Virus record (IMG/VR): IMGVR_UViG_3300007735_000615
Coordinates: 1-32,193 of that record
Strand: one strand, 5' to 3'
DNA length: 32,193 nt
Origin: a virus
Shown here: one piece after another, positions 8,913 to 29,710 of the stretch
Layout: every line of letters begins with the position of its first letter
Position numbering within the stretch: the stretch's first letter is position 1
The notes under the pieces: generated by a model
What the model was told of the DNA's origin: nothing
Seen by the model: the letters and a program-made list of their open reading frames with translations, nothing else
Database searches by the model: none
Translations under genes and position numbers: made by a program

Positions 8913-10448
8913 TCAGTAGTACGCCGCGTGGCGTTTAAAAAATCGGGGTTCGTCCTGCTCATCTGTGTCAATTCTGATGAAGCCGCCTTGTCTGACGCGC
9001 AGCAGTGCTTGGGTGGTCGTGTCCACATAGTCGTCGTTCTCCCCCACAGGGAAGGCTGCAACCTCTTCAATGACTTCGCGTGCCCAGCGTGTGTCAGGTG
9101 CCCACACCAAACCGGATGCAAACATGTCGGCCACGGCATTGACACGCACCATCTTATCGTTTCCACGGCTGGGTGTAAATTCCTGCACCGGGATGCCCAT
9201 CGCCCGAAGCTCTTGGATCAGGGGGCCACCAGCGGCTTTCTTCTCCACAATGAACGCATCCGGCTCCCACTCCGTCCAATGCTTAAAGGCAGATACCTTG
9301 AGTTCAGGGAACGGCATCCTGTCCTTGAACGCGTCCAGCAGTATCACCTGTGCCTTGCTGTTTTCTTCCTCGTTGTAGAACACGCCCCACGTTGTGCAGG
9401 CACTGTAGTCAGATGTGCTCTTTGTCTCGTGCGCCGTGTCCCAGCTCTGGATTATGTACTCACAACTGGGGGGTTCTTTGGGTTCCCATATGCGCCAGTG
9501 CTTTCTGGAGATGATCGCCGCCGTGTCGCTGGTTGGCTGCTGCATGTATTGCGCGTTCCAGTACCGTGGCTCCATTGAGGACTTGGCGCTCAGGAGGGAC
9601 TCCAGCGGCCACTGCTCTGGCCAGAGTGACTTCTCGTTGTCCGTGCCTTCGTTCAGGATGGCCGGTAGCTCCACGATCTCCCATGTGGGAGAGTCCGGGT
9701 TATTGACTTGGTACTGGATGAGGCGACCGGTTAAGTCCAGCGGCCCCCAGCGTGTCATGATGACAATGATCGCCCCGTTGGGCATCAGTCGTTGGAGTGG
9801 GCCGGTCTGGAACCACGACCATGCCGTGTCGAAGGCAAGTCGGCTATTGGCTTTAACATCTTGCTCAGAATGCGGGTCGTCGATAACGAAAAGATCAGCT
9901 CCCCGACCAGCCAAAGCACCACCAACACCGGCAGCATAATACTGACCACCAGCAGCAGTAGACCACTTTCCAGCAGCCTTCTGATCGTCTGCCACAAGCG
10001 TTTGAGGAAAGAGTTCATGGTATTGCTCATCGTCCAGTAAGTTTCTGACTCTGCGTCCGAAGTCCTCGGACAGCGATGCGGTGTGCGTTCCCATGATGAT
10101 CTTCTTATTAGGGAAGTTCCCTAGGAAGAACGCGGGGAATAGATAGCTGGAGAACTCTGACTTACCCATACGTGGCGCAATGTTGATGATGACGCGCTTC
10201 TTTTTACCGGCAATCACGTCCTGAAATATCTTGGCCAGCTTCCTGTGGTGCGGCCCGACCTTGAATCCGGGGTAGACGTGCAAGGCAAACTTAATCATGT
10301 CCGTGCGCCCGGCCACCAGCGCGTACCGCTTCTCACGCTCCTCCAACATATCCATGAGTTCAATCTTTTCCTTGAGGCTCATGGTGGGGAGGGCACGCTG
10401 AATCGCCTGTATTTCCCCAATGTTTAACGTTAGACTTTCAAGATTCAT
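8913..10448 (-). CDS. terL: Terminase large subunit (packaging ATPase/nuclease)
   Basis: A 511-residue two-domain packaging motor. The ATPase half shows a Walker A-like loop (NIAPRMGKSE, K96), Walker B (LFVIDDP, D190/D191) and the coupling motif IMTRW (231-234). The nuclease half shows SWDTAHETKS (D337), VEKKAAGG (E402) and NDDYVDTTTQALL (D472/D473/D476), the acidic residues expected for an RNase H-fold headful or cos nuclease. It translocates DNA into the prohead through the portal encoded next. The ATG at 10448 lies inside the end of the small-subunit gene (11-nt overlap) with a weak ribosome site, so coupled translation is likely. Confidence 0.95.
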   Translation of the reverse strand: MNLESLTLNIGEIQAIQRALPTMSLKEKIELMDMLEEREKRYALVAGRTDMIKFALHVYPGFKVGPHHRKLAKIFQDVIAGKKKRVIINIAPRMGKSEFSSYLFPAFFLGNFPNKKIIMGTHTASLSEDFGRRVRNLLDDEQYHELFPQTLVADDQKAAGKWSTAAGGQYYAAGVGGALAGRGADLFVIDDPHSEQDVKANSRLAFDTAWSWFQTGPLQRLMPNGAIIVIMTRWGPLDLTGRLIQYQVNNPDSPTWEIVELPAILNEGTDNEKSLWPEQWPLESLLSAKSSMEPRYWNAQYMQQPTSDTAAIISRKHWRIWEPKEPPSCEYIIQSWDTAHETKSTSDYSACTTWGVFYNEEENSKAQVILLDAFKDRMPFPELKVSAFKHWTEWEPDAFIVEKKAAGGPLIQELRAMGIPVQEFTPSRGNDKMVRVNAVADMFASGLVWAPDTRWAREVIEEVAAFPVGENDDYVDTTTQALLRVRQGGFIRIDTDEQDEPRFFKRHAAYY

Positions 10449-11037
10449 CGGTTGTGGCCGGTGAGTTAGTGCTAACTTCTATGTCTTCAATTGGCTCTGC
10501 GTCTTGCACGCCCATGAACTTGGCCAGCTTCTCTTTGAGCTTGCGGTCAATCTCCTCATCCGTCAGGTCGGTCTTCTTGACTTCAATTTTGTCGGTGAAC
10601 AAACCAACTTCGGTGACCTTACCCAAAAGGCCAAGCGCTTTCAGGCGGATGTTGGCGTTGGGGTTTTCGCATTCTTCCAACAGTTTGGCCACGGTGTAGC
10701 CGCGGAGTTCACGGGCCTGATGCACAAACTCCCAGTCGTAGGCGGTCAGCATGCCAACCAGATGCTGCACCGCAGCAGGCGTTTTGATCTGGGTAAGATG
10801 TTCGTGGGTAATTTCTGCTGGCGCAGAAGAGATGAGATTTGTGAAAGATGCGCGTGCCGCTTGCACTTCCGCTTGGGTGACCACGGTCTCTGTATCGGCG
10901 GCACCCAGACCCTTGAGCCACTCGACTGTGTTGACTTGGGCGTCGATCACGTCCGCCGGATGTTCTTTTGCAAGCGGCGTGGGTTTACCAGAGTGATCGC
11001 TCACTTCAGGTTCAAAATCAATAAGGTGGTCTAACAT
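10438..11037 (-). CDS. terS: Putative terminase small subunit
   Basis: A 199-residue acidic, helical protein, first gene of the leftward arm and directly upstream of terL, the normal terS place. The central block HLVGMLTAYDWEFVHQAREL and RGYTVAKLLEE, then IRLKALGLLGKVTEVGLFT and KTDLTDEEIDRKLKEKL, are typical of a family I associate with small terminases in environmental phages; the small subunit recognises the packaging site and loads TerL. No clear HTH motif is visible by eye, so the call relies mainly on position and recalled family pattern. AAGGGA lies 11 nt before the ATG, which is longer than usual spacing. Confidence 0.75.
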   Translation of the reverse strand: MLDHLIDFEPEVSDHSGKPTPLAKEHPADVIDAQVNTVEWLKGLGAADTETVVTQAEVQAARASFTNLISSAPAEITHEHLTQIKTPAAVQHLVGMLTAYDWEFVHQARELRGYTVAKLLEECENPNANIRLKALGLLGKVTEVGLFTDKIEVKKTDLTDEEIDRKLKEKLAKFMGVQDAEPIEDIEVSTNSPATTDES

Positions 11038-11052
11038 CGGCGCATAAGTCCC

Positions 11053-11081
11053 TTGTACCTGCGATGCGCGGAGTGTATACT
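11053..11081 (+). promoter_or_regulatory. Candidate rightward promoter of structured RNA
   Basis: TTGTAC (11053-11058), a 17-nt spacer and TATACT (11076-11081), the -10 being 5 of 6 to consensus with TG just before it. The predicted start near 11088 opens a non-coding stretch that ends at a clear terminator (11177-11209). It overlaps the candidate leftward promoter, so the two would compete. Confidence 0.4.
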
Positions 11082-11101
11082 ATTTGTCAGCAGTTGCGCA
11101 A
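11067..11101 (-). promoter_or_regulatory. Candidate leftward promoter for packaging/head operon
   Basis: On the minus strand TTGCGC (11101-11096) is followed after 16 nt by TATACA (11079-11074), about 35 nt before the terS start. The TTGCGCAA around 11094-11101 is an 8-bp palindrome. The match to the sigma-70 consensus is partial, and a late phage promoter may need an activator. Confidence 0.35.
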
Positions 11102-11209
11102 CCCAGTCGAAATATGGCCTTCGGCCATCTTCACTGATTGTTCAGATGCTTCTCCTCAGTTGTGCTCCAACTGTTTAATCCCCCGTCAGCAATGTCGGGG
11201 GATTTTTTT
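11088..11209 (+). ncRNA. Candidate small structured RNA, about 120 nt
   Basis: Between the divergent arms lies a stretch with no plausible ORF but four successive perfect hairpins: ATGGCC-TTC-GGCCAT (11114-11128), CTGA-TTGT-TCAG (11134-11145), CAGTTG-TGCTC-CAACTG (11157-11173) and AATCCCCCG-N10-CGGGGGATT (11177-11204), the last followed by a T7 run. A -10 of TATACT sits at the expected distance upstream. This is the architecture of an independently transcribed small RNA. The 5' end is inferred, not observed; no known RNA family is recognised. Confidence 0.45.
11177..11209 (+). terminator. Intrinsic terminator
   Basis: A perfect 9-bp stem AATCCCCCG (11177-11185) with CGGGGGATT (11196-11204), 10-nt loop, and T run 11203-11209. 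Orientation is rightward; on the minus strand no U-tract follows the stem. It ends whatever is transcribed rightward before the early promoter at 11221 and would insulate the two. Confidence 0.85.
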
Positions 11210-11220
11210 ATGTCTATCGT

Positions 11221-11250
11221 TTGACAGAAGTTATTTGTAATTTTTATAAA
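11221..11250 (+). promoter_or_regulatory. Strong sigma-70-type early promoter
   Basis: A perfect -35 TTGACA (11221-11226), 18-nt spacer and -10 TATAAA (11245-11250), in an AT-rich stretch just after the intrinsic terminator. Transcription would start near 11257 and run into the early arm, leaving a leader of about 255 nt before the first gene. This is the closest match to a host housekeeping promoter in the window, as expected for immediate-early phage genes. Confidence 0.75.
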
Positions 11251-11379
11251 AATTTATGGGGGTATGTGTGATTATCACGAAGGGGGTAGTCTGGAGTATT
11301 AAGTATTACAAAAGTGCTGAGAATCGGTGGGGAATAGTGTTCAGTGCTACGCCGTCATCGTCACCATATATGGGTTGGT

Positions 11380-11430
11380 GGGGGTATGGTGGGGTCTAAG
11401 GTACTCAGTTATAACCCCCCATTTACCCCC
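11380..11430 (+). promoter_or_regulatory. G-rich/C-rich leader hairpin
   Basis: In the early 5' leader GGGGGTA (11380-11386) pairs with TACCCCC (11424-11430), TGG (11387-11389) with CCA (11419-11421) and GGGG (11391-11394) with CCCC (11415-11418), leaving a 20-nt loop and small bulges. The same G-side could alternatively form a two-tier G-quadruplex. No T-run follows, so it is not a classical terminator. A regulatory or stabilising role in the leader is inferred. Confidence 0.55.
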
Positions 11431-11476
11431 TTACATACAATAGAGTTATCGGTCTGAGGCACAAGCCTACAGCGAA

Positions 11477-13633: not shown

Positions 13634-14038
13634 ATGAGAACAAGTGAACTGACAGGAGCCGCCCTTGATTGGGCGGTGGCAAAGTGTGAGGGTGCAACAG
13701 ACGAGTGGCGTAGAGATGCGCCGTTCTTGTGGAATGGTGTGCCTTGCATACGCATGGATGGGCACGATGTGAACTACACCCCATCAGCCAACTGGGTACT
13801 AGGCGGCCCGATTATTGACCGAGAAGCCATTGCCCTATCGCCCATGCCCGATGGGTTGTGTCGTGCATACGCCGCCGATGGAACGAGGTGGGCACCGAAT
13901 GGTGATGAGGTGTTCAACTGGAAGCACAAGCAACAGGGGTATCACCCACTCATCGCAGCCATGCGGTGCTATGTGGCAAGCAAGCTCGGCGATGAAGTCG
14001 AGATTCCAGCAGAGTTAACACAAGGAGAAACAACATGA
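13634..14038 (+). CDS. DUF2591 (NinX-like) phage protein
   Basis: A 134-residue protein with the family hallmarks MRTSELTGAALDWAVAKCEG at the N-terminus, NYTPSANWVLGGPIIDREAI in the middle and HPLIAAMRCYVASKLGDEVE near the C-terminus. This is the DUF2591 family, common in phages and prophages of proteobacteria and including NinX-type proteins; its biochemical role is unknown. AAGGAGA is well placed upstream. It starts a run of four genes with overlapping or touching ends (to 14658). Confidence 0.85.
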   Translation: MRTSELTGAALDWAVAKCEGATDEWRRDAPFLWNGVPCIRMDGHDVNYTPSANWVLGGPIIDREAIALSPMPDGLCRAYAADGTRWAPNGDEVFNWKHKQQGYHPLIAAMRCYVASKLGDEVEIPAELTQGETT

Positions 14039-14235: not shown

Positions 14236-14450
14236 AATACAAACACCTGCACACATGGGACACCATGATGGGGAGCTATGACTACTGGAAAGAGTTCACG
14301 CAAGCACTAGCAGAGCACGACAACGCACCGCTGGACTGCATCTACAAACGAAGCGAGGACAAGGGTGGTGGCTGGGAGTGCGCTAGTAGTCTGACCACTA
14401 CGCACAGATTTTGGGATACACACAGAGCAATACACAAAGAGGAGAACTGA
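14232..14450 (+). CDS. Small early protein, unknown
   Basis: A 72-residue protein rich in aromatic residues and His (MKYKHLHTWDTMMGSYDYWK, TTTHRFWDTHRAIHKEEN). AAAAGGAGA precedes the start, which overlaps the upstream stop by 4 nt. I do not recognise the family. Confidence 0.7.
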   Translation: MKYKHLHTWDTMMGSYDYWKEFTQALAEHDNAPLDCIYKRSEDKGGGWECASSLTTTHRFWDTHRAIHKEEN

Positions 14451-14451
14451 A

Positions 14452-14658
14452 ATGGCTGCAATTCACTTGGACTACGACATGCTGCACAAGGCAGCACAAC
14501 AGATGGAACGCGAAGGCGGTAGCTTCGCAAAACACATAGCACTAGCGTTCTTTGTCGCTGACGCTATGAATCAGGAAGCACTGGTCAATGCGTTCGATGA
14601 CTTGTTCTTGCAGTTCTATCGCAAGTACCGCAGAGAGCAACGCTTAACACAGGAGTAA
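14452..14658 (+). CDS. Small helical early protein, unknown
   Basis: A 68-residue helical protein (MAAIHLDYDMLHKAAQQMER, FAKHIALAFFVADAMNQEAL) with a basic C-terminus (RKYRREQRL). It begins 1 nt after the previous stop; GAGGAG upstream is the ribosome site. No domain recognised. A hairpin of the recurring family follows its stop by 5 nt. Confidence 0.7.
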   Translation: MAAIHLDYDMLHKAAQQMEREGGSFAKHIALAFFVADAMNQEALVNAFDDLFLQFYRKYRREQRLTQE

Positions 14659-17235: not shown

Positions 17236-17254
17236 AAACTAAAGGAGAAGCAGA

Positions 17255-17428
17255 ATGACAGATAGAAAATTTGTAACAGAAGAACAGTTCTACGCATGGA
17301 TGGGTTCAGACACACTGAAAGTACACGACTTAACTGCGTTGTTGCTTGAGGTAATCAATGGTCACTATCCAGTGCAAGTACTGCGTGAGGATGTGTTGAG
17401 CTATGAAACACAAGGAGAAGCAGAATGA
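17255..17428 (+). CDS. Small early protein, 57 residues, unknown
   Basis: ATG at 17255 with AAAGGAGAA 6 nt upstream opens a 57-codon frame (MTDRKFVTEEQFYAWMGSDT, then LKVHDLTALLLEVINGHYPV) ending in TGA at 17426-17428, which overlaps the next ATG by 4 nt. The product is helical and slightly acidic. The spacing and overlap make it a genuine gene although it is very short. No family recognised. Confidence 0.75.
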   Translation: MTDRKFVTEEQFYAWMGSDTLKVHDLTALLLEVINGHYPVQVLREDVLSYETQGEAE

Positions 17429-23830: not shown

Positions 23831-24012
23831 CTGAGCACAAACACGCCGAAGTGCTACGCGCTATTGCTGATGGCAAAACAGTGCAGGTACTGGTACTAAC
23901 AGGTGTCGAACGAGGCGACTTCTGGATTGACATACCCACACGCCCGTCTATCAGCATGTACCACGAGAAAACATACAGAATAAAACCAGAGGAGCAGCAT
24001 GAAACCATTTGA
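23827..24012 (+). CDS. Small phage protein with TTG start
   Basis: Translation apparently begins at TTG 23827, with AAGGAGG ideally placed 7 nt upstream and no in-frame ATG until far into the protein. The 61-residue product (TEHKHAEVLRAIADGKTVQV, GDFWIDIPTRPSISMYHEKT, ending YRIKPEEQHETI) matches a familiar phage pattern: HAE-x-LRAIADGK-x-VQ, then a Tyr-Arg-(I/L)-KPE ending. Function unknown. It overlaps the polymerase start by 14 nt. Confidence 0.72.
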   Translation: MTEHKHAEVLRAIADGKTVQVLVLTGVERGDFWIDIPTRPSISMYHEKTYRIKPEEQHETI

Positions 24013-25963
24013 CAAGATAGTGGCCATCGACTTTGAAACTCGGTGGGACAGCAAAGACTACACGTTATCAAAGATGACAACTGAGGAGTACATACGTGAT
24101 AAAAGATTTACAGCGTTTGGAGCATGCGTACATGAATTCGGAACCGATGATCCTATTGAATGGATTGGAGGAGATGGACTACCTGAATACTTTTCTGGAG
24201 TCGATTGGGGACGAACCGCAGTGCTTGCGCACAACGCACAGTTCGATGTATCCATTATGGAGTGGAGGTATAACGCCAGACCAGCCTTCATCTTCGACAC
24301 ACTATCAATGGCGCGAGCTTTGCGCGGTGTGGAAGTTGGAAACTCCTTGGCTAAACTCGCCAGCGACTTCTCTTTGCAGGAGAAGGGTCAGGCCGTTCAC
24401 TCGACTAATGGACTCACTGAACTTTCCGAAGACATTGAACGGGCGCTCGCTGCATACTGTGCGCATGATGTGTTTTTGTGTGAGGAGATATTCAAGCGAT
24501 TGGGGGAGGGTTATCCAAAGTCAGAACTCAGACTGATCGACATGACGCTCAAGATGTACACACGCCCACAGCTTGAGCTTGATAGCAAGATGCTCATCAA
24601 AGCACTAACAGAAGAAGGAGAACTACGTGAAGGATTACTTCAACGACTCGGCATACAAGAGGCTGAGCTTGCATCGAACCCGAAGTTTGCTGACGTACTT
24701 CAAAGCCTCGGGGTTGTTGCCCCGACTAAGGTCAGTAAAACTACCGGCAAAGAAGCGTTTGCTTTCGCCAAGAATGATGCCTTGTTCCAAGCGTTGCTCA
24801 ACAGTGAACGTGAAGATGTTGCCCTCCTTTGTGAGGCACGCCTTAAAGTTAAATCTACAACCGAGCGCACACGGGCACAACGATTCCTTGACATCAGTCA
24901 GCGCGGCAAACTACCGGTTCCGTTATCGTATTACGGTGCTCTCTCGGGTCGCTGGACGGCGGCAAAGGGTAGTGCCATCAACATGCAAAACCTCAAGCGC
25001 GGAAGTTTCTTACGCAAAGCGATTATGGCTCCCGAAGGCTACCAGCTCGTCGTTGGTGATCTATCACAGATTGAACCGCGAGTTCTCGCGTGGCTTAGTG
25101 ATTACCACGAGATGCTTGACATCTTCAGGGCTGATGGTGACCCTTACGCCGCTTTCGGTGCACAGATGTTTAACATACCCGGACTCACTAAGGTCAGCCA
25201 CCCAGACTTGCGACAGTCTGCTAAGAGCGCGTTACTTGGTTGCGGGTACGGTCTCGGCTGGGCTTCGTTTGCGTCCCAGCTTCTTGTTGGGTTCCTTGGT
25301 GCGCCGCCGGTACGGTATGACAAAGCGTTTGCCAAAGCGTTGGGGGTCGATCAAGCCTATGCCCAGAAGTTTATTGACTGGGAAGACAACGTGACCAAGA
25401 TGCTGGAGATACCGCACACCTATACACAGCAGGAGTTGTTGACGCACTGCCTTGCAGCCAAGAAGATCATTGACATCTACCGCGCCACTGCCCACCCCGT
25501 TGCTACCTTCTGGGACATGTGCTCACAGCTTATCGAGGACAGTTTGTATGGGGGTAGGGTTTACGAGCACAAGTGTTTGACATTCAGCAAGGAACGTATA
25601 GAATTACCAAACGGGATGAGCTTGCTCTACCCCGAACTCAGACGCGAAAAAGATGACAAAGGTAGGAGCCAGTGGGTATACGGGCCAAAAGCTACCAAGC
25701 TGTATGCAGGGAAGGTTACCAATAACGTTACGCAGGCCGTAGCTCGTATTGTCATGACCGATGGAATGTTGAGGGTATCGAAGAAGTACCCAGTGGTAGG
25801 CACAGTGCACGATGAACAGATTGTGTTGGTGCCGGATGCAGAGGTCGCTGTTGCTAAGACTTGGGTCTTGGAGCAGATGACGTTGGAGCCGAAGTACTTG
25901 CCGGGGATACCTCTGGCCGCTGACGGTGGTGCACACCGTAGATATGGAGAAGCAAAACAATGA
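23999..25963 (+). CDS. Family A DNA polymerase with 3'-5' exonuclease
   Basis: A 654-residue replicative polymerase of the PolA/T7 type. Exonuclease motifs: Exo I AIDFETR (D11, E13), Exo II LAHNAQFD (N79, D83), Exo III YCAHD (Y153, D157). Polymerase motifs: SGRWTAAKG, motif A VVGDLSQIEPR (D354), motif B RQSAKSALLGCGYG (R405, K409, Y417), motif C VHDEQ (H604, D605). In motif B the residue equivalent to Phe762 of E. coli Pol I is Leu413. Motif A has IEPR instead of the usual IELR. It copies the phage genome with the helicase and primase encoded downstream. The ATG follows GAGGAGCAGC. Confidence 0.96.
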   Translation: MKPFDKIVAIDFETRWDSKDYTLSKMTTEEYIRDKRFTAFGACVHEFGTDDPIEWIGGDGLPEYFSGVDWGRTAVLAHNAQFDVSIMEWRYNARPAFIFDTLSMARALRGVEVGNSLAKLASDFSLQEKGQAVHSTNGLTELSEDIERALAAYCAHDVFLCEEIFKRLGEGYPKSELRLIDMTLKMYTRPQLELDSKMLIKALTEEGELREGLLQRLGIQEAELASNPKFADVLQSLGVVAPTKVSKTTGKEAFAFAKNDALFQALLNSEREDVALLCEARLKVKSTTERTRAQRFLDISQRGKLPVPLSYYGALSGRWTAAKGSAINMQNLKRGSFLRKAIMAPEGYQLVVGDLSQIEPRVLAWLSDYHEMLDIFRADGDPYAAFGAQMFNIPGLTKVSHPDLRQSAKSALLGCGYGLGWASFASQLLVGFLGAPPVRYDKAFAKALGVDQAYAQKFIDWEDNVTKMLEIPHTYTQQELLTHCLAAKKIIDIYRATAHPVATFWDMCSQLIEDSLYGGRVYEHKCLTFSKERIELPNGMSLLYPELRREKDDKGRSQWVYGPKATKLYAGKVTNNVTQAVARIVMTDGMLRVSKKYPVVGTVHDEQIVLVPDAEVAVAKTWVLEQMTLEPKYLPGIPLAADGGAHRRYGEAKQ

Positions 25964-26205
25964 AGACAAAAATAAACTACACAAAAGCGTATCGTGAAAA
26001 GACGAAAGAGCTTAAAGAGCTGCAAGCCCAAATGGAAAGCAAGGTTCGCTACTTTGAAGATCGGTCAACGCACTATGAAACGGAATTTGATAAAGCCGTA
26101 GCAAGCAACCGCAGGTATCAGGAAATAATACTGGAGCAACGCGGCATCATCGGTTTCTTGGAAGGCAAGATTACAAAACTAACAGAACTAATGGAGGAGC
26201 AATGA
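25960..26205 (+). CDS. Small coiled-coil protein
   Basis: An 81-residue almost fully helical protein (AYREKTKELKELQAQMESKV, GFLEGKITKLTELMEEQ) with heptad-spaced hydrophobics. It overlaps the polymerase and HExxH genes by 4 nt each, so it belongs to the replication operon. A structural or dimerising partner role is likely; no specific function can be given. Confidence 0.75.
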   Translation: MKTKINYTKAYREKTKELKELQAQMESKVRYFEDRSTHYETEFDKAVASNRRYQEIILEQRGIIGFLEGKITKLTELMEEQ

Positions 26206-26522
26206 CAGCAAGAACAAAGACACCGATACCACGGCGTATACGCGTGGGCAGTAAGCAGTACTCAATCGACATCGTGGAGACCATGCTTCGCAAGCGGTGC
26301 ATGGCGCGTATCTACTACGACCACAGCAAGATTGAGCTTGGCCAGTTCAGTAACGTGACAGGTAAGCAGTTCGATGACGACAAGGTGCAGGAGAACTTCT
26401 GGCATGAAGTAACCCACGCCATCCTGTACGACATGGGTGAGAACAGACTCAATGCCAACGAGAAGTTTGTCGTTGAGTTCTCAAAGCGTTTATCACAAGC
26501 AATCAAGTCTGCGAGGTTTTGA
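26202..26522 (+). CDS. HExxH metallopeptidase-like phage protein
   Basis: A 106-residue protein with the zinc motif FWHEVTHAILYDMG (H68, E69, H72) and acidic candidates E87 or E92 in NANEKFVVEFSKRL for the third ligand. N-terminally RRIRVGSKQYSIDIVETM is followed by beta strands (ARIYYDHSKIELG), similar to minimal gluzincin-type proteins such as SprT/ImmA-like domains. This is a recurring phage gene next to polymerases. Substrate unknown; a role on protein-DNA crosslinks or repressor cleavage would be speculation. Confidence 0.75.
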   Translation: MTARTKTPIPRRIRVGSKQYSIDIVETMLRKRCMARIYYDHSKIELGQFSNVTGKQFDDDKVQENFWHEVTHAILYDMGENRLNANEKFVVEFSKRLSQAIKSARF

Positions 26523-26746
26523 TGATTAAAGAAATTGTTGTTACAGATGAGGGCGTTGAGCTTTTAAGTTTTCGCGCTGTTGCCGTTGAAGACTACGGTA
26601 GTGAGGGGTGCAAACCCATCCACAAAGACGACTGCCCTTTAGCTGGTATTTCGTGCATCAGTGGTTCAGGGAATTCCATATGCGGCGGGTACATGGGCCA
26701 CGCAGGGAACCACGTTGTTAAATGCCAAGAGAAAGTAAACCAATGA
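26522..26746 (+). CDS. Small Cys-rich protein, unknown
   Basis: An ATG at 26522 overlaps the preceding TGA by one base, with GAGG 5 nt upstream; a TTG at 26519 is a less likely start. The 74-residue protein has five Cys in its C-terminal half (EGCKPIHKDDCPLAGISC, GNSICGGYMGHA, VVKCQE) spaced as in small metal-binding or redox domains. No family recognised. It overlaps the nuclease gene by 4 nt. Confidence 0.65.
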   Translation: MIKEIVVTDEGVELLSFRAVAVEDYGSEGCKPIHKDDCPLAGISCISGSGNSICGGYMGHAGNHVVKCQEKVNQ

Positions 26747-27408
26747 AACAAGTAACGTGGAGCCACAGTGCCCTGAAAGATTTTGAAGGATGCGCACGCA
26801 GGTATCACGAAGTCAAGGTGCTTAACAAATATCCGTTTCAGGAAACTGAGGCTACGCATTACGGCAAGGAGTTTCACACCGCTGCTGAACTGTACATACG
26901 GGACGGCACACTGTTGCCCAAGCAGTTCTCTTACGCACAGGAAGTTCTTGATGCGTTGCTGGCCAAGCCGGGCAGGAAGTTGTGCGAATACGAGATGGGT
27001 ATCACGCCTGACTTGCAAGCGTGCAGCTTTAACGAGAAGGGCAGGTGGGTGCGTGGTATTGCTGACTTGCTCATCATTGACGACGACAACCTGACCGCCA
27101 CTGTCGTGGACTACAAGACAGGCAACAACCGCTACCCTGACCTTGACCAGTTAAAGCTGATGTCGATGATGGTGTTCAAGCACTTCCCGCACATCCGCAG
27201 GGTCAAGTCAGCGTTGCTGTTCGTGGTCAAGAATGATATGGTTAAGTCCAGCATGGCGCTGGGCGATGCCGATGCTGAGTGGTGGAAGTACCGCGAGCGT
27301 GTGGCCAAGTTAGAGCAGTGCTTTGATACAGGCGTGTGGAATCCCAAGTCCTCTGCGCTGTGTCCGTGGTGCCCAGTTAAATCATGTGAGTACAACCCAA
27401 AACATTAG
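26743..27408 (+). CDS. PD-(D/E)XK nuclease with Fe-S type Cys, Cas4/AddB-like
   Basis: From the ATG overlapping the previous stop (ATGA) the product has 221 residues. N-terminal WSHSALKDFEGCARRYHEVK includes C17; GKEFHTAAELYI carries H45; E84 lies in CEYEMG; RGIADLLIIDD gives D108 and VVDYKTGNN gives D123 and K125, the RecB-family nuclease core. C-terminal ALCPWCPVKSCEY supplies C207, C210, C215, which with C17 fit the four-Cys Fe-S cluster of Cas4 and AddB. It likely processes DNA ends in replication or recombination; no CRISPR genes lie near. Confidence 0.85.
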   Translation: MKQVTWSHSALKDFEGCARRYHEVKVLNKYPFQETEATHYGKEFHTAAELYIRDGTLLPKQFSYAQEVLDALLAKPGRKLCEYEMGITPDLQACSFNEKGRWVRGIADLLIIDDDNLTATVVDYKTGNNRYPDLDQLKLMSMMVFKHFPHIRRVKSALLFVVKNDMVKSSMALGDADAEWWKYRERVAKLEQCFDTGVWNPKSSALCPWCPVKSCEYNPKH

Positions 27409-27660: not shown

Positions 27661-27677
27661 AACAACGGAGAAGCATC

Positions 27678-29237
27678 TTGGAAATCCTTGAAGACAAGGC
27701 ACTAATATTCAGAACCAGAAACCCAGATAAGTACAGCATCATTCCAAAACACAAAGTCATCGAGCGCGATGACGGTGGGTTCGATGTCGCTGTCTACTGG
27801 GGACTGGACGAATGCAGAGTGCTACGCAACCTCGGGGTGAAGGACGTTCCCTCACCAATCACACGCCGCTACAAGTGGCCGGGCAGGTACAAACCTATGC
27901 AACATCAGGTCGAGACAGCAGCGTTCTTGACGATGCACCGCAAAGCGTTTGTGTTCTCCGAACCCGGCACAGGTAAGACGCTTGCTGCACTATGGGCGGC
28001 TGACTACCTGATAAGCATTAAACATGTACGCCGTGTCTTGATCTTGTGCCCACTGTCCATCATGCAGTCTGCATGGTTGGCTGACCTGAGCAACAGCATC
28101 ATCCATCGCTCTGCCATCGTCGCGCACCACCCCCAAGCTAGTCGCAGGATTGAGATGATTCAACAGGACTACGAGTTCGTCATCGCTAACTACGAAGGAC
28201 TGAACCTGATAGCCAATGAGATCAACGCTGATGGGCGCTTTGATCTGGTGATCGTGGATGAAGCCAACGCATACAAGACGGTGACAACCAAACGCTGGAA
28301 GGCACTGAAGTCAATCATCAAACCAAGCACGCACGTATGGATGATGACAGGTACTCCAGCATCGCAGTCGCCAGCAGATGCGTATGGCTTGGCCAAGATC
28401 GTGAACCCTGAAGGTGTACCCAACTTCTACACTTCATGGCGCGACAGAGTGATGAACAAGATCACGCTGTACAAGTGGGCACCGAAAGCCAATGCAGCCG
28501 ATCTGGTACACGAAGCACTGCAACCCGCAATTCGGTTCAGTAAAGCGCAGTGCCTTGACTTGCCGCCCGTGCTGACCACAACACGCGAAGTACCACTGAC
28601 ACCACAACAGGCCAAGTACTACCACCTGTTGAAAGACCGCATGCTGGTGCAGGCCGCAGGCGAGACGATCAGCGCAGTCAACGCTGCCGCTGGTGTGAGT
28701 AAGCTCTTGCAGATCAGTTGCGGTGCTGTGTACACAGATGACAAAGAAGTTATCGAGTTCGATGCTGGCCCACGGCTTGGCGTGTTGGAAGAAATACTAG
28801 ATGAGACAGATCGCAAGGTCATCATCTTCGCGTTGTTCCGCTCCAGCATCGACACCATACAAACGCATCTGACAAAGAAGAACATCCCCAACGAGTGCAT
28901 ACACGGCGGTGTAGCTGCCAACAAACGCGCTGACATCATTCACCGGTTCCAGCATGAGAAGGAGCCAAGGGTGCTGGTGATGCAGCCACAAGCAACAGCA
29001 CACGGGATTACCCTGACTGCTGCCGACACGGTGGTGTTCTTTGGGCCGTTGATGAGCGTGGAGCAGTACATCCAGTGCATTGCACGGGCTGACCGCAAGG
29101 GGCAGAACTCAGACAAAGTTACTGTTATTCACATCCAAGGCTCGCCGATTGAAAAGAAAATGTTCAAAGCACTGGAAGGGAAAGTGAGTGATAACTTACT
29201 TTTAACCCAGATGTTTGAGATAGAAATAAATTCTTGA
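27678..29237 (+). CDS. SNF2-family (SF2) helicase/translocase, TTG start
   Basis: A 519-residue superfamily 2 helicase. Motifs in order: MQHQ (Q75), Walker A SEPGTGKTLAA (K100), Ia LILCPLSIMQSAW, Walker B VIVDEANAYK (D194, E195; DEAN replaces DEAH), III MTGTPASQ (224-227), and in the second lobe VIIFALFRSSIDTIQ, VLVMQPQATAHGITLTAAD and motif VI QYIQCIARADRKGQ. Such proteins move along DNA and remodel forks or recombination intermediates. No ATG is near the start; TTG at 27678 has CGGAG 7 nt upstream and is the likely start. Confidence 0.93.
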   Translation: MEILEDKALIFRTRNPDKYSIIPKHKVIERDDGGFDVAVYWGLDECRVLRNLGVKDVPSPITRRYKWPGRYKPMQHQVETAAFLTMHRKAFVFSEPGTGKTLAALWAADYLISIKHVRRVLILCPLSIMQSAWLADLSNSIIHRSAIVAHHPQASRRIEMIQQDYEFVIANYEGLNLIANEINADGRFDLVIVDEANAYKTVTTKRWKALKSIIKPSTHVWMMTGTPASQSPADAYGLAKIVNPEGVPNFYTSWRDRVMNKITLYKWAPKANAADLVHEALQPAIRFSKAQCLDLPPVLTTTREVPLTPQQAKYYHLLKDRMLVQAAGETISAVNAAAGVSKLLQISCGAVYTDDKEVIEFDAGPRLGVLEEILDETDRKVIIFALFRSSIDTIQTHLTKKNIPNECIHGGVAANKRADIIHRFQHEKEPRVLVMQPQATAHGITLTAADTVVFFGPLMSVEQYIQCIARADRKGQNSDKVTVIHIQGSPIEKKMFKALEGKVSDNLLLTQMFEIEINS

Positions 29238-29271: not shown

Positions 29272-29305
29272 GTCCAACCTTAGACAAACAAAACAGGAGA
29301 AGCAA

Positions 29306-29710
29306 ATGGACGAACAACAAGTCCCGTTCGATAAATTGGTGAAGGTCTACCGCAAAATGAAGCTGGAGATCGACACGCTGACACAAGAGTACGACACCAA
29401 GGTGGAGTTACTCAAAGCGCAACAAGATGAAATCAAGTTCGCTATCAAAGACCAGATGAAGGCACTCGGTGTCTCATCTGTAAAGAGTCCCTTTGGGACG
29501 GTATCCATGATGACGAAGACGCGTTACAACACGCAGGACTGGTCGTCGTTTAAGGAGTTCATCCTTGAGCACGGCGTAGTCGATCTGCTGGAGAAGCGCA
29601 TCGCTCAAACCAACATGGCCACCTTCCTTGAAGAGAACCCGGGGGTTGTACCTCCGGGATTAAATTCAAACACTGAGTTTGAAATCCGTATCACCAAACC
29701 AACCAAGTGA
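29306..29710 (+). CDS. Conserved phage protein with N-terminal coiled coil
   Basis: An in-frame start at 29234 exists, but AGGAGA lies 7 nt before ATG 29306, which also begins the conserved part (134 residues). The N-terminus FDKLVKVYRKMKLEIDTLTQ and following helix form a coiled coil; then KALGVSSVKSPFGTVSMMTK and DLLEKRIAQTNMATFLEENP with PPGLN. This pattern (VYRK-x-K, coiled coil, G-x-x-S(V)-x(n)-GT, KRI, EEN-x(3)-PPG-(L/V)-N) recurs directly before the ssDNA-binding-type gene in phages; it could be its partner. Function unknown. Confidence 0.78.
   Translation: MDEQQVPFDKLVKVYRKMKLEIDTLTQEYDTKVELLKAQQDEIKFAIKDQMKALGVSSVKSPFGTVSMMTKTRYNTQDWSSFKEFILEHGVVDLLEKRIAQTNMATFLEENPGVVPPGLNSNTEFEIRITKPTK

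What the first reader, a model, noticed from the sequence alone, without database searches (positions are those of the whole stretch)
11053..11209. Candidate phage small RNA between the divergent arms
Seen: a TTGTAC-17-TATACT promoter match, then about 120 nt without coding potential but with four consecutive perfect hairpins (11114-11128, 11134-11145, 11157-11173, 11177-11204), the last followed by seven T. A complete terminator so close upstream of the main early promoter makes sense only if a rightward transcript starts before it. Known: intergenic phage small RNAs with intrinsic terminators exist. Inferred: an RNA here could regulate the switch between the arms, or an antisense partner could act on the late leader, since its first bases lie over the leftward promoter.
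Basis: partly seen in the sequence, partly recalled or inferred. Interest (0 to 1): 0.72.

Follow-up and report, generated by a model that had tools for sequence, protein, structure and literature searches.

The report
Phage sRNA targeting helicase ribosome sites
Between its two divergent gene arms this environmental phage carries a conserved small RNA whose exposed CU-rich stretch matches the ribosome-binding sites of several of its own early genes, above all a DNA helicase 16.5 kb away; the two change together across related phages, so the RNA very probably controls (most likely represses) the making of those proteins.

Summary
Window 11087-11209 (+) is one member of an RNA family not in Rfam (no match at the gathering score). 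It lies next to the TerS-like gene in all 179 relatives tested. A covariance model finds one strong copy in each of 100 loci, and all three stems covary.

The single-stranded stretch complements an extended Shine-Dalgarno (GGAGAAGCA, often up to the start codon) of rightward (early) genes, not leftward (late) genes. The best evidence is compensatory. The sRNA exists in at least 12 natural seed variants, and the ribosome-binding site of an SNF2/DEAD helicase gene (window 27678) changes with the seed: own pairs -18.0 kcal/mol, permuted pairs -13.3, 0/10000 permutations. Polymerase, exonuclease and all ten late gene families show no such signal.

I conclude that it is a trans-acting antisense sRNA that blocks translation initiation of helicase, a Gam-like gene and others. 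It works like betaproteobacterial S17/bdhR1 (RF02278) but is not a member by score. Expression, repression and timing are inferred. One clade has lost the RNA yet keeps a matching site.

The parts
11053..11081 (+). sRNA promoter: -35 TTGTAC 11053-11058, 17 nt, -10 TATACT 11076-11081
   Evidence: Sequence; conserved upstream of the element in relatives.
11087..11209 (+). small RNA gene (ends predicted, not measured)
   Evidence: Covariance model hit 11087-11208, 57 bits; covariation; fold z -5.5.
11088..11144 (+). 5' part with a lineage-specific insertion (hairpins 11114-11128 and 11134-11145); in most relatives the compact hairpin GCAAGCAGUUGC
   Evidence: Alignment; helix 1 covaries in the family.
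11145..11156 (+). single-stranded seed GAUGCUUCUCCU
   Evidence: Conserved, UCUCCU core unpaired 0.74-0.98 in 116 members, complementary to early RBSs.
11157..11173 (+). hairpin directly 3' of the seed, sequence free but pairing kept
   Evidence: Helix 2: all 5 pairs with double changes.
11177..11209 (+). intrinsic terminator, 9-bp stem and seven T
   Evidence: Sequence; helix 3, 95% of cells paired.
27666..27677 (+). main target site CGGAGAAGCATC in front of the helicase start TTG 27678
   Evidence: Duplex -21.7 kcal/mol; seed covariation 0/10000.
27678..29237 (+). target gene: SNF2/DEAD helicase, 519 aa
   Evidence: PF00176, PF00271, phrog_62.
29294..29305 (+). target site CAGGAGAAGCAA of the Gam-like gene 29306-29710
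   Evidence: Duplex -18.4; own-seed matches in B and C lineages; permutation 111/10000.
26191..26201 (+). target site of a 106-aa gene (26202-26522)
   Evidence: Duplex -15.9; family permutation p 0.003.
25944..25955 (+). predicted target site ATGGAGAAGCAA of the gene at 25960
   Evidence: Duplex -16.1; not tested by covariation.
17242..17254 (+). predicted target site AAGGAGAAGCAGA of the gene at 17255
   Evidence: Duplex -17.9; only -5.1 with folding costs.
17412..17424 (+). predicted target site AAGGAGAAGCAGA of the gene at 17425
   Evidence: Duplex -17.9; -17.8 with folding costs.
14439..14451 (+). possible target site GAGGAGAACTGAA of a 68-aa gene (14452-14658)
   Evidence: Weak in this phage; family permutation p 0.004.

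Best explanation
The element is a phage-encoded, trans-acting antisense small RNA. It is read from its own sigma70-type promoter and ended by its own terminator. Between two hairpins it exposes a CU-rich seed that pairs with the extended Shine-Dalgarno sequence, in many phages up to the start codon, of a set of early (replication/recombination) genes. The best-supported target is an SNF2/DEAD helicase, followed by a Gam-like gene. Pairing would mask the ribosome-binding site and so lower translation of those genes, while late genes, whose sites often read GGAG-T, escape. Because the sRNA gene has its own promoter, its dose should rise with phage genome copy number, so the likely purpose is negative feedback on replication/recombination genes and the early-to-late handover. 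Shown by comparative sequence evidence: the RNA family, its fold, the conserved seed and the seed-target covariation (my confidence about 0.9). Inferred: expression, repression as the direction of effect (about 0.8), timing or copy-number feedback (about 0.5), and any chaperone need.
For: RNA family with covarying stems, always beside the divergent TerS-like gene (179/179). Seed conserved and its core unpaired. Seed complements enriched at early RBSs: 17/48 early against 1/17 late starts at -12 kcal/mol or better, scrambled extension 1/500. Helicase RBS covaries with 12 natural seed classes in 22 genomes: own -18.0, permuted -13.3 (sd 0.84), 0/10000; class level 0/20000. Control families: polA, exonuclease and ten late families show none. 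With folding costs, the helicase site falls from -12.6 to -2.9 on seed shuffling. Precedent for the mode of action: S17 (PMC11722255) and RF02278 RNAs (PMC5688073).
Against: No transcript data. A clade without the RNA (G063 and kin) still has AGGAGAAGCAAATG before the Gam-like gene and two similar sites elsewhere. Three helicase orthologues (G002, G009, G029) have weak sites. In D-, E- and J-seed phages most early sites keep AAAGC with one mismatch. The sequence invariance of the 5' hairpin is not explained. The permutation test does not model the phylogeny explicitly; control gene families stand in for that.
Confidence: 0.8

Rival explanations
1. The RNA is mainly aimed at host mRNAs: a general anti-Shine-Dalgarno RNA that dampens host translation, as the toxic double-hairpin RNAs can; matches to phage early sites are a by-product of similar SD sequences.
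For: UCUCCU pairs with any strong SD; weak similarity to RF02278 (27 bits), whose overproduction slows growth (PMC5688073). The host is unknown, so host targets could not be scored.
Against: A by-product would not covary with one phage gene over 12 seed classes, nor spare late phage genes. Host targets in addition to phage ones are not excluded.
Confidence: 0.12
2. It is only a cis element: an insulating terminator before the early promoter, with a short by-product RNA.
For: A terminator sits just before the early promoter (TTGACA 11221-11226) in nearly all relatives.
Against: Insulation needs neither a conserved unpaired seed, nor a covarying second hairpin, nor seed-RBS covariation 16.5 kb away.
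Confidence: 0.03
3. The RNA or an antisense partner acts on the late (leftward) leader.
For: The promoter lies in the TerS-like 5' region; the palindromic -10 could serve both directions.
Against: The transcript (from 11087) does not overlap the TerS-like start (11037). Late starts show no complementarity beyond scrambled seeds (217/500) and no covariation (p 0.10-0.95). The terminator is followed by T only on the + strand.
Confidence: 0.03
4. It is a protein sponge or decoy (for an RNA-binding protein of the host).
For: The 5' hairpin GCAAGCAGUUGC is more conserved in sequence than pairing alone demands, so an unknown partner may bind it.
Against: Does not predict seed-RBS covariation. A second, protein-binding function of the 5' hairpin is not excluded.
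Confidence: 0.05

Closest known systems
Betaproteobacterial 'toxic' double-hairpin sRNAs, RF02278 (B. cenocepacia ncS03, ncS05, ncS27, ncS62 / bdhR1; B. pertussis S17)
   Same: Short RNA, CU-rich unpaired stretch followed by a hairpin and a terminator hairpin; pairs with ribosome-binding sites of many mRNAs (PMC5688073, PMC11722255).
   Different: Below the family's cut-off (27 against 50 bits; 13.7-23.6 bits in five relatives). Seed reads UUGCUUCUCCU, not UGUCUCCUCC; no second CU site in the following loop; phage-borne with phage targets that covary.
suhB/mmgR (RF00519) and anti-hemB (RF02837) RNAs
   Same: Sub-threshold matches sharing a CU-rich stretch and a terminator (32.8 of 41 bits and 27.1 of 49.5 bits at best).
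   Different: Below cut-off; matches reflect general architecture.
T4 RegA translational repressor
   Same: What it would do: compete with the ribosome at initiation regions of many early phage mRNAs (about 30 in T4; PMC3014915).
   Different: RegA is a protein; here an RNA, by base pairing. Works like, not a member.
Other phage regulatory RNAs: P1/P7 c4, lambda OOP, PreS, VP882 VpdS
   Same: Phage-encoded RNAs acting on phage or host mRNAs; c4 masks an RBS (review PMC12197685).
   Different: As described there, one or few phage targets, or Hfq-dependent effects on host and phage mRNAs; no sequence kinship found (no Rfam match at the cut-off).

Membership tests
RF02278 (Betaproteobacteria toxic sRNA / S17) | Covariance-model match at the gathering score (50 bits) | tested here: not met
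   27.0 bits in the window; 13.7-23.6 in five relatives, none in a sixth.
RF02278 (Betaproteobacteria toxic sRNA / S17) | Unpaired CU-rich stretch, hairpin, then terminator hairpin | tested here: met
   Alignment to the model; fold and covariation.
RF02278 (Betaproteobacteria toxic sRNA / S17) | Second CU-rich site in the loop of the hairpin after the seed | tested here: not met
   In the window the loop is UGCUC, and across the family the loop varies freely.
RF02278 (Betaproteobacteria toxic sRNA / S17) | Pairs with and represses mRNAs at the RBS in cells | not testable with these tools
   Complementarity and covariation shown; repression needs a reporter.
Trans-acting antisense sRNA (functional class) | Own promoter and terminator | tested here: met
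   By sequence and conservation only; transcription not measured.
Trans-acting antisense sRNA (functional class) | Target sites elsewhere in the genome that covary with the seed | tested here: met
   Helicase RBS, 0/10000 permutations; controls negative.
Any Rfam 15 family | Match at the family's gathering score | tested here: not met
   None in the window nor in five relatives.

The most novel reading that the evidence does not exclude
A dedicated phage sRNA is the RNA counterpart of T4 RegA: a multi-target translational repressor of the phage's own replication/recombination regulon. Its dose rises with genome copies and so times the early-to-late handover, and seed and target sites coevolve over a large environmental phage group.
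Probability: 0.5. Interest if true: 0.82.

Novelty: new variant of a known kind. Interest (0 to 1): 0.74.

Why it matters
If true, a widespread group of uncultured environmental phages controls its replication genes by base pairing instead of by a repressor protein. Nature has already supplied at least 12 seed variants with matching target changes, so the regulon can be read and tested directly from sequence. It also gives an RNA family, absent from Rfam, that marks this phage group, and a natural knock-out clade.

Tried and rejected
DNA similarity to cultured phages: none, only two short chance matches; TerS protein: none. The model R1 gives no match in three related seawater phages and in phage MinM2, and only a 20-bit chance-like hit beside the end of polA in DSL-LC04. 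GTDB pattern scan: 29 scattered hits in unrelated taxa that look like chance and were not examined one by one; no host identified. Rfam at gathering: none. Late-leader antisense: no complementarity or covariation. The idea that intramolecular AAGCAG/UUGCUU pairing explains the invariant 5' hairpin fails in the C lineage (seed UUUACUUUU with GCAAGCAG unchanged). Counts of GGAGAAGC against GGAGAAAGC over whole early regions did not separate seed classes cleanly; orthologue-level permutation did. My first regular expressions for the element and seed had wrong spacing or missed seed types and were corrected. Start codons come from a simple in-house gene caller, not a trained one. Literature searches for a phage sRNA acting on early RBSs found no such case in the held open-access library, which is not a full search.

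Full report
Observation. The RNA strand 11088-11212 folds at -46.2 kcal/mol, z -5.5, no shuffle as low. The generic promoter/terminator scan did not list either site: the -35 is weak by consensus (3/6) and the terminator loop is 10 nt. The case for the element therefore rests on comparison, not on consensus.

Context. The window is a 32,193-base virus record. Leftward lie a TerS-like gene (10438-11037; no PHROG match, named so from its place beside TerL), TerL (phrog_38), portal and major head protein. Rightward lie early genes with a PolA-type polymerase (23999-25963), a PD-(D/E)XK nuclease (26722-27408) and an SNF2/DEAD helicase (27678-29237). 'Early' and 'late' are inferred from gene content. 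TerL is 46-53% identical to phage DSL-LC04, 023Pt_psg01 and Pelagibacter phages HTVC027P/023P. No isolate in the collection carries the TerS-like protein or similar intergenic DNA. The host is unknown.

RNA family. The TerS-like protein pulled in 80 environmental contigs; nearly all that reach far enough carry the element directly upstream. Pattern scans added about 100 more, and more distant TerS relatives about 146 further loci, some of them overlapping contigs already held. A covariance model built on 26 members found one strong copy in each of 100 loci, the window at 57 bits; three weak extra hits at 17-19 bits (E 0.009-0.06) look like chance. On the 103 aligned matches 89% of cells pair, 17 of 19 pairs carry double changes, and the covariation score is 0.468, against 0.142 for shuffles and at most 0.131 for slid partners. 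That alignment is fitted to the model, but the second hairpin's compensations are visible in raw sequence (GATGG..CCATC, AGACT..AGTCT, CAGGG..CCCTG, CTAGG..CCTAG). All 179 loci with enough upstream sequence have the divergent TerS-like gene. In 129 distinct upstream regions 126 have the CU seed, 125 a terminator and 92 a promoter-like pair.

Seed. What hardly varies is the unpaired stretch between hairpins, UUGCUUCUCCU (window GAUGCUUCUCCU, 11145-11156). In ensembles of 116 members the UCUCCU core is unpaired with probability 0.74-0.98; its 5' extension is often paired, so pairing with a target would have to start at the core and open the rest (inference).

Targets. In the window, complements of the seed are enriched on the + strand right of 13.6 kb and many sit at ribosome-binding sites. 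17 of 48 rightward starts but 1 of 17 leftward starts pair at -12 kcal/mol or better. Scrambling the bases upstream of the UCUCCU core matches the real early value in 1 of 500 trials and the late value in 217 of 500. In relatives with the main seed, GGAG is followed by AAGC or AAAGC in 70 of 507 early sites and 7 of 162 late ones; GGAG-T makes up 58 of 162 late and 82 of 507 early sites. With folding costs of the full RNA and mRNA, early sites bind at -2.8 to -18.6 and late sites at -1.6 to -9.1; the helicase site drops from -12.6 to -2.9 (sd 1.9) when the seed is shuffled.

Compensatory change. Natural seeds differ by insertions and substitutions. The helicase RBS follows: window and G030 CAGAUGCUUCUCC with GGAGAAGCATC-TTG; G004 CGGUUGCUUCUCC with GGAGAAGCAAC-TTG; G062 CAUUGCUUCUCC with GGAGAAGTA-ATG; G001 CAUUUGCUUCUC with GAGAAGCAA-ATG; G015 GUUUGCUUUCUCCU with AGGAGAAAGTAA-ATG; G055 AUUUGCUCUCUC with GAGAGAGCAA-ATG; G017 UUUACUUUUCUC with GAGAGAAGTAA-ATG; G051 UUUGUUUCUCUCUCU with GAGAGAGAAACAG-ATG. 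Own pairs average -18.0 against -13.3 (sd 0.84) with seeds relabelled among classes, 0 of 10000; counting each of 12 classes once, 0 of 20000; the own seed is best or tied in 15 of 22 and in the top two in 19. Relatedness alone should act on every gene of these genomes, yet polA (p 0.35), exonuclease (0.36), 101-aa (0.17), 326-aa (0.40) and ten late families (0.10-0.95) show nothing; the 106-aa (0.003), 68-aa (0.004) and Gam-like (0.014) families show weaker signals. These p values are not corrected for the 27 families tested; only the helicase survives such a correction clearly. The Gam-like gene still has uninterrupted own-seed matches in the B and C lineages (AGGAGAAAGCAC, AAGGAGAAAAGTA).

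Limits. The clade that lost the RNA (G063 and kin) keeps AGGAGAAGCAAATG before the Gam-like gene and two similar sites elsewhere: recent loss, another pairing RNA, or an independent reason for that RBS. Three helicase orthologues have weak sites. In D-, E- and J-seed phages most early sites keep AAAGC with one mismatch. The extra sequence conservation of the 5' hairpin is unexplained.

Mechanism. Masking of the SD and start codon by an RNA is an established way to block initiation; in Bordetella, S17 down-regulates genes with matches near the RBS (PMC11722255), and overexpression of the Burkholderia RF02278 RNA ncS27 attenuates growth (PMC5688073). I therefore infer repression. Feedback by gene dose and early-to-late timing are a hypothesis, resembling in purpose T4 RegA, which competes with ribosomes on about 30 mRNAs (PMC3014915).

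Known or new. No Rfam family matches at its cut-off; RF02278, suhB/mmgR and anti-hemB match below it. It works like RF02278 but fails its score and lacks its second CU site, so it is not filed there. The passages read of the phage-sRNA review PMC12197685 mention no multi-target RBS regulator of this design. I rate it a new variant of a known kind.

Noticed in passing
window 11211-11250: Palindrome TGTCTATCGTTTGACA (TGTCTAACGTTAGACA in relatives) overlaps the -35 of the early promoter (TTGACA 11221-11226, TATAAA 11245-11250): a candidate repressor operator just after the sRNA terminator, kept in nearly all relatives and in the clade without the sRNA.
   Followed up: no
window 11270-11450: Conserved non-coding stretch before the first early gene with GGTGGGGAATAGTGTTCA and G-rich motifs (GGGTTGGTGGGGGTATGGTGGGGTC); origin or regulatory region possible.
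   Followed up: no
L009, L019, L026, L059, L063, L066, L415: between sRNA terminator and early promoter: Insertion cassettes of about 80-110 nt with ends TGTTGGTGG...CCACCAACA and very variable interiors; ARAGORN finds a tRNA-Met in L026 and six tRNAs at the same spot in L415, none in the others tried.
   Followed up: partly
L286-L289 (contigs of L137, L085, L154, L134): The same core (GGTAAGCAGTTGCCGC...TTGCTTCTCCT plus terminator, without hairpin 2) in another setting, in L286 just downstream of a 142-aa ORF and not beside a TerS-like gene; model scores 29-41 bits.
   Followed up: partly
G063, G064, G065, G068 (loci L426, L422, L435, L420): Clade of relatives in which the sRNA is missing between TerS and the early operator, a natural knock-out; G063 keeps AGGAGAAGCAAATG before the Gam-like gene.
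   Followed up: partly
window 11088-11144 and relatives: Small hairpin modules such as TTGGCCTTTGGCCAA inserted at the same place in the sRNA 5' part in several lineages, as if this spot accepts mobile palindromes.
   Followed up: no
window 13634-14038: NinX-like protein (PF10765, E 2.7e-18) among the early genes.
   Followed up: no
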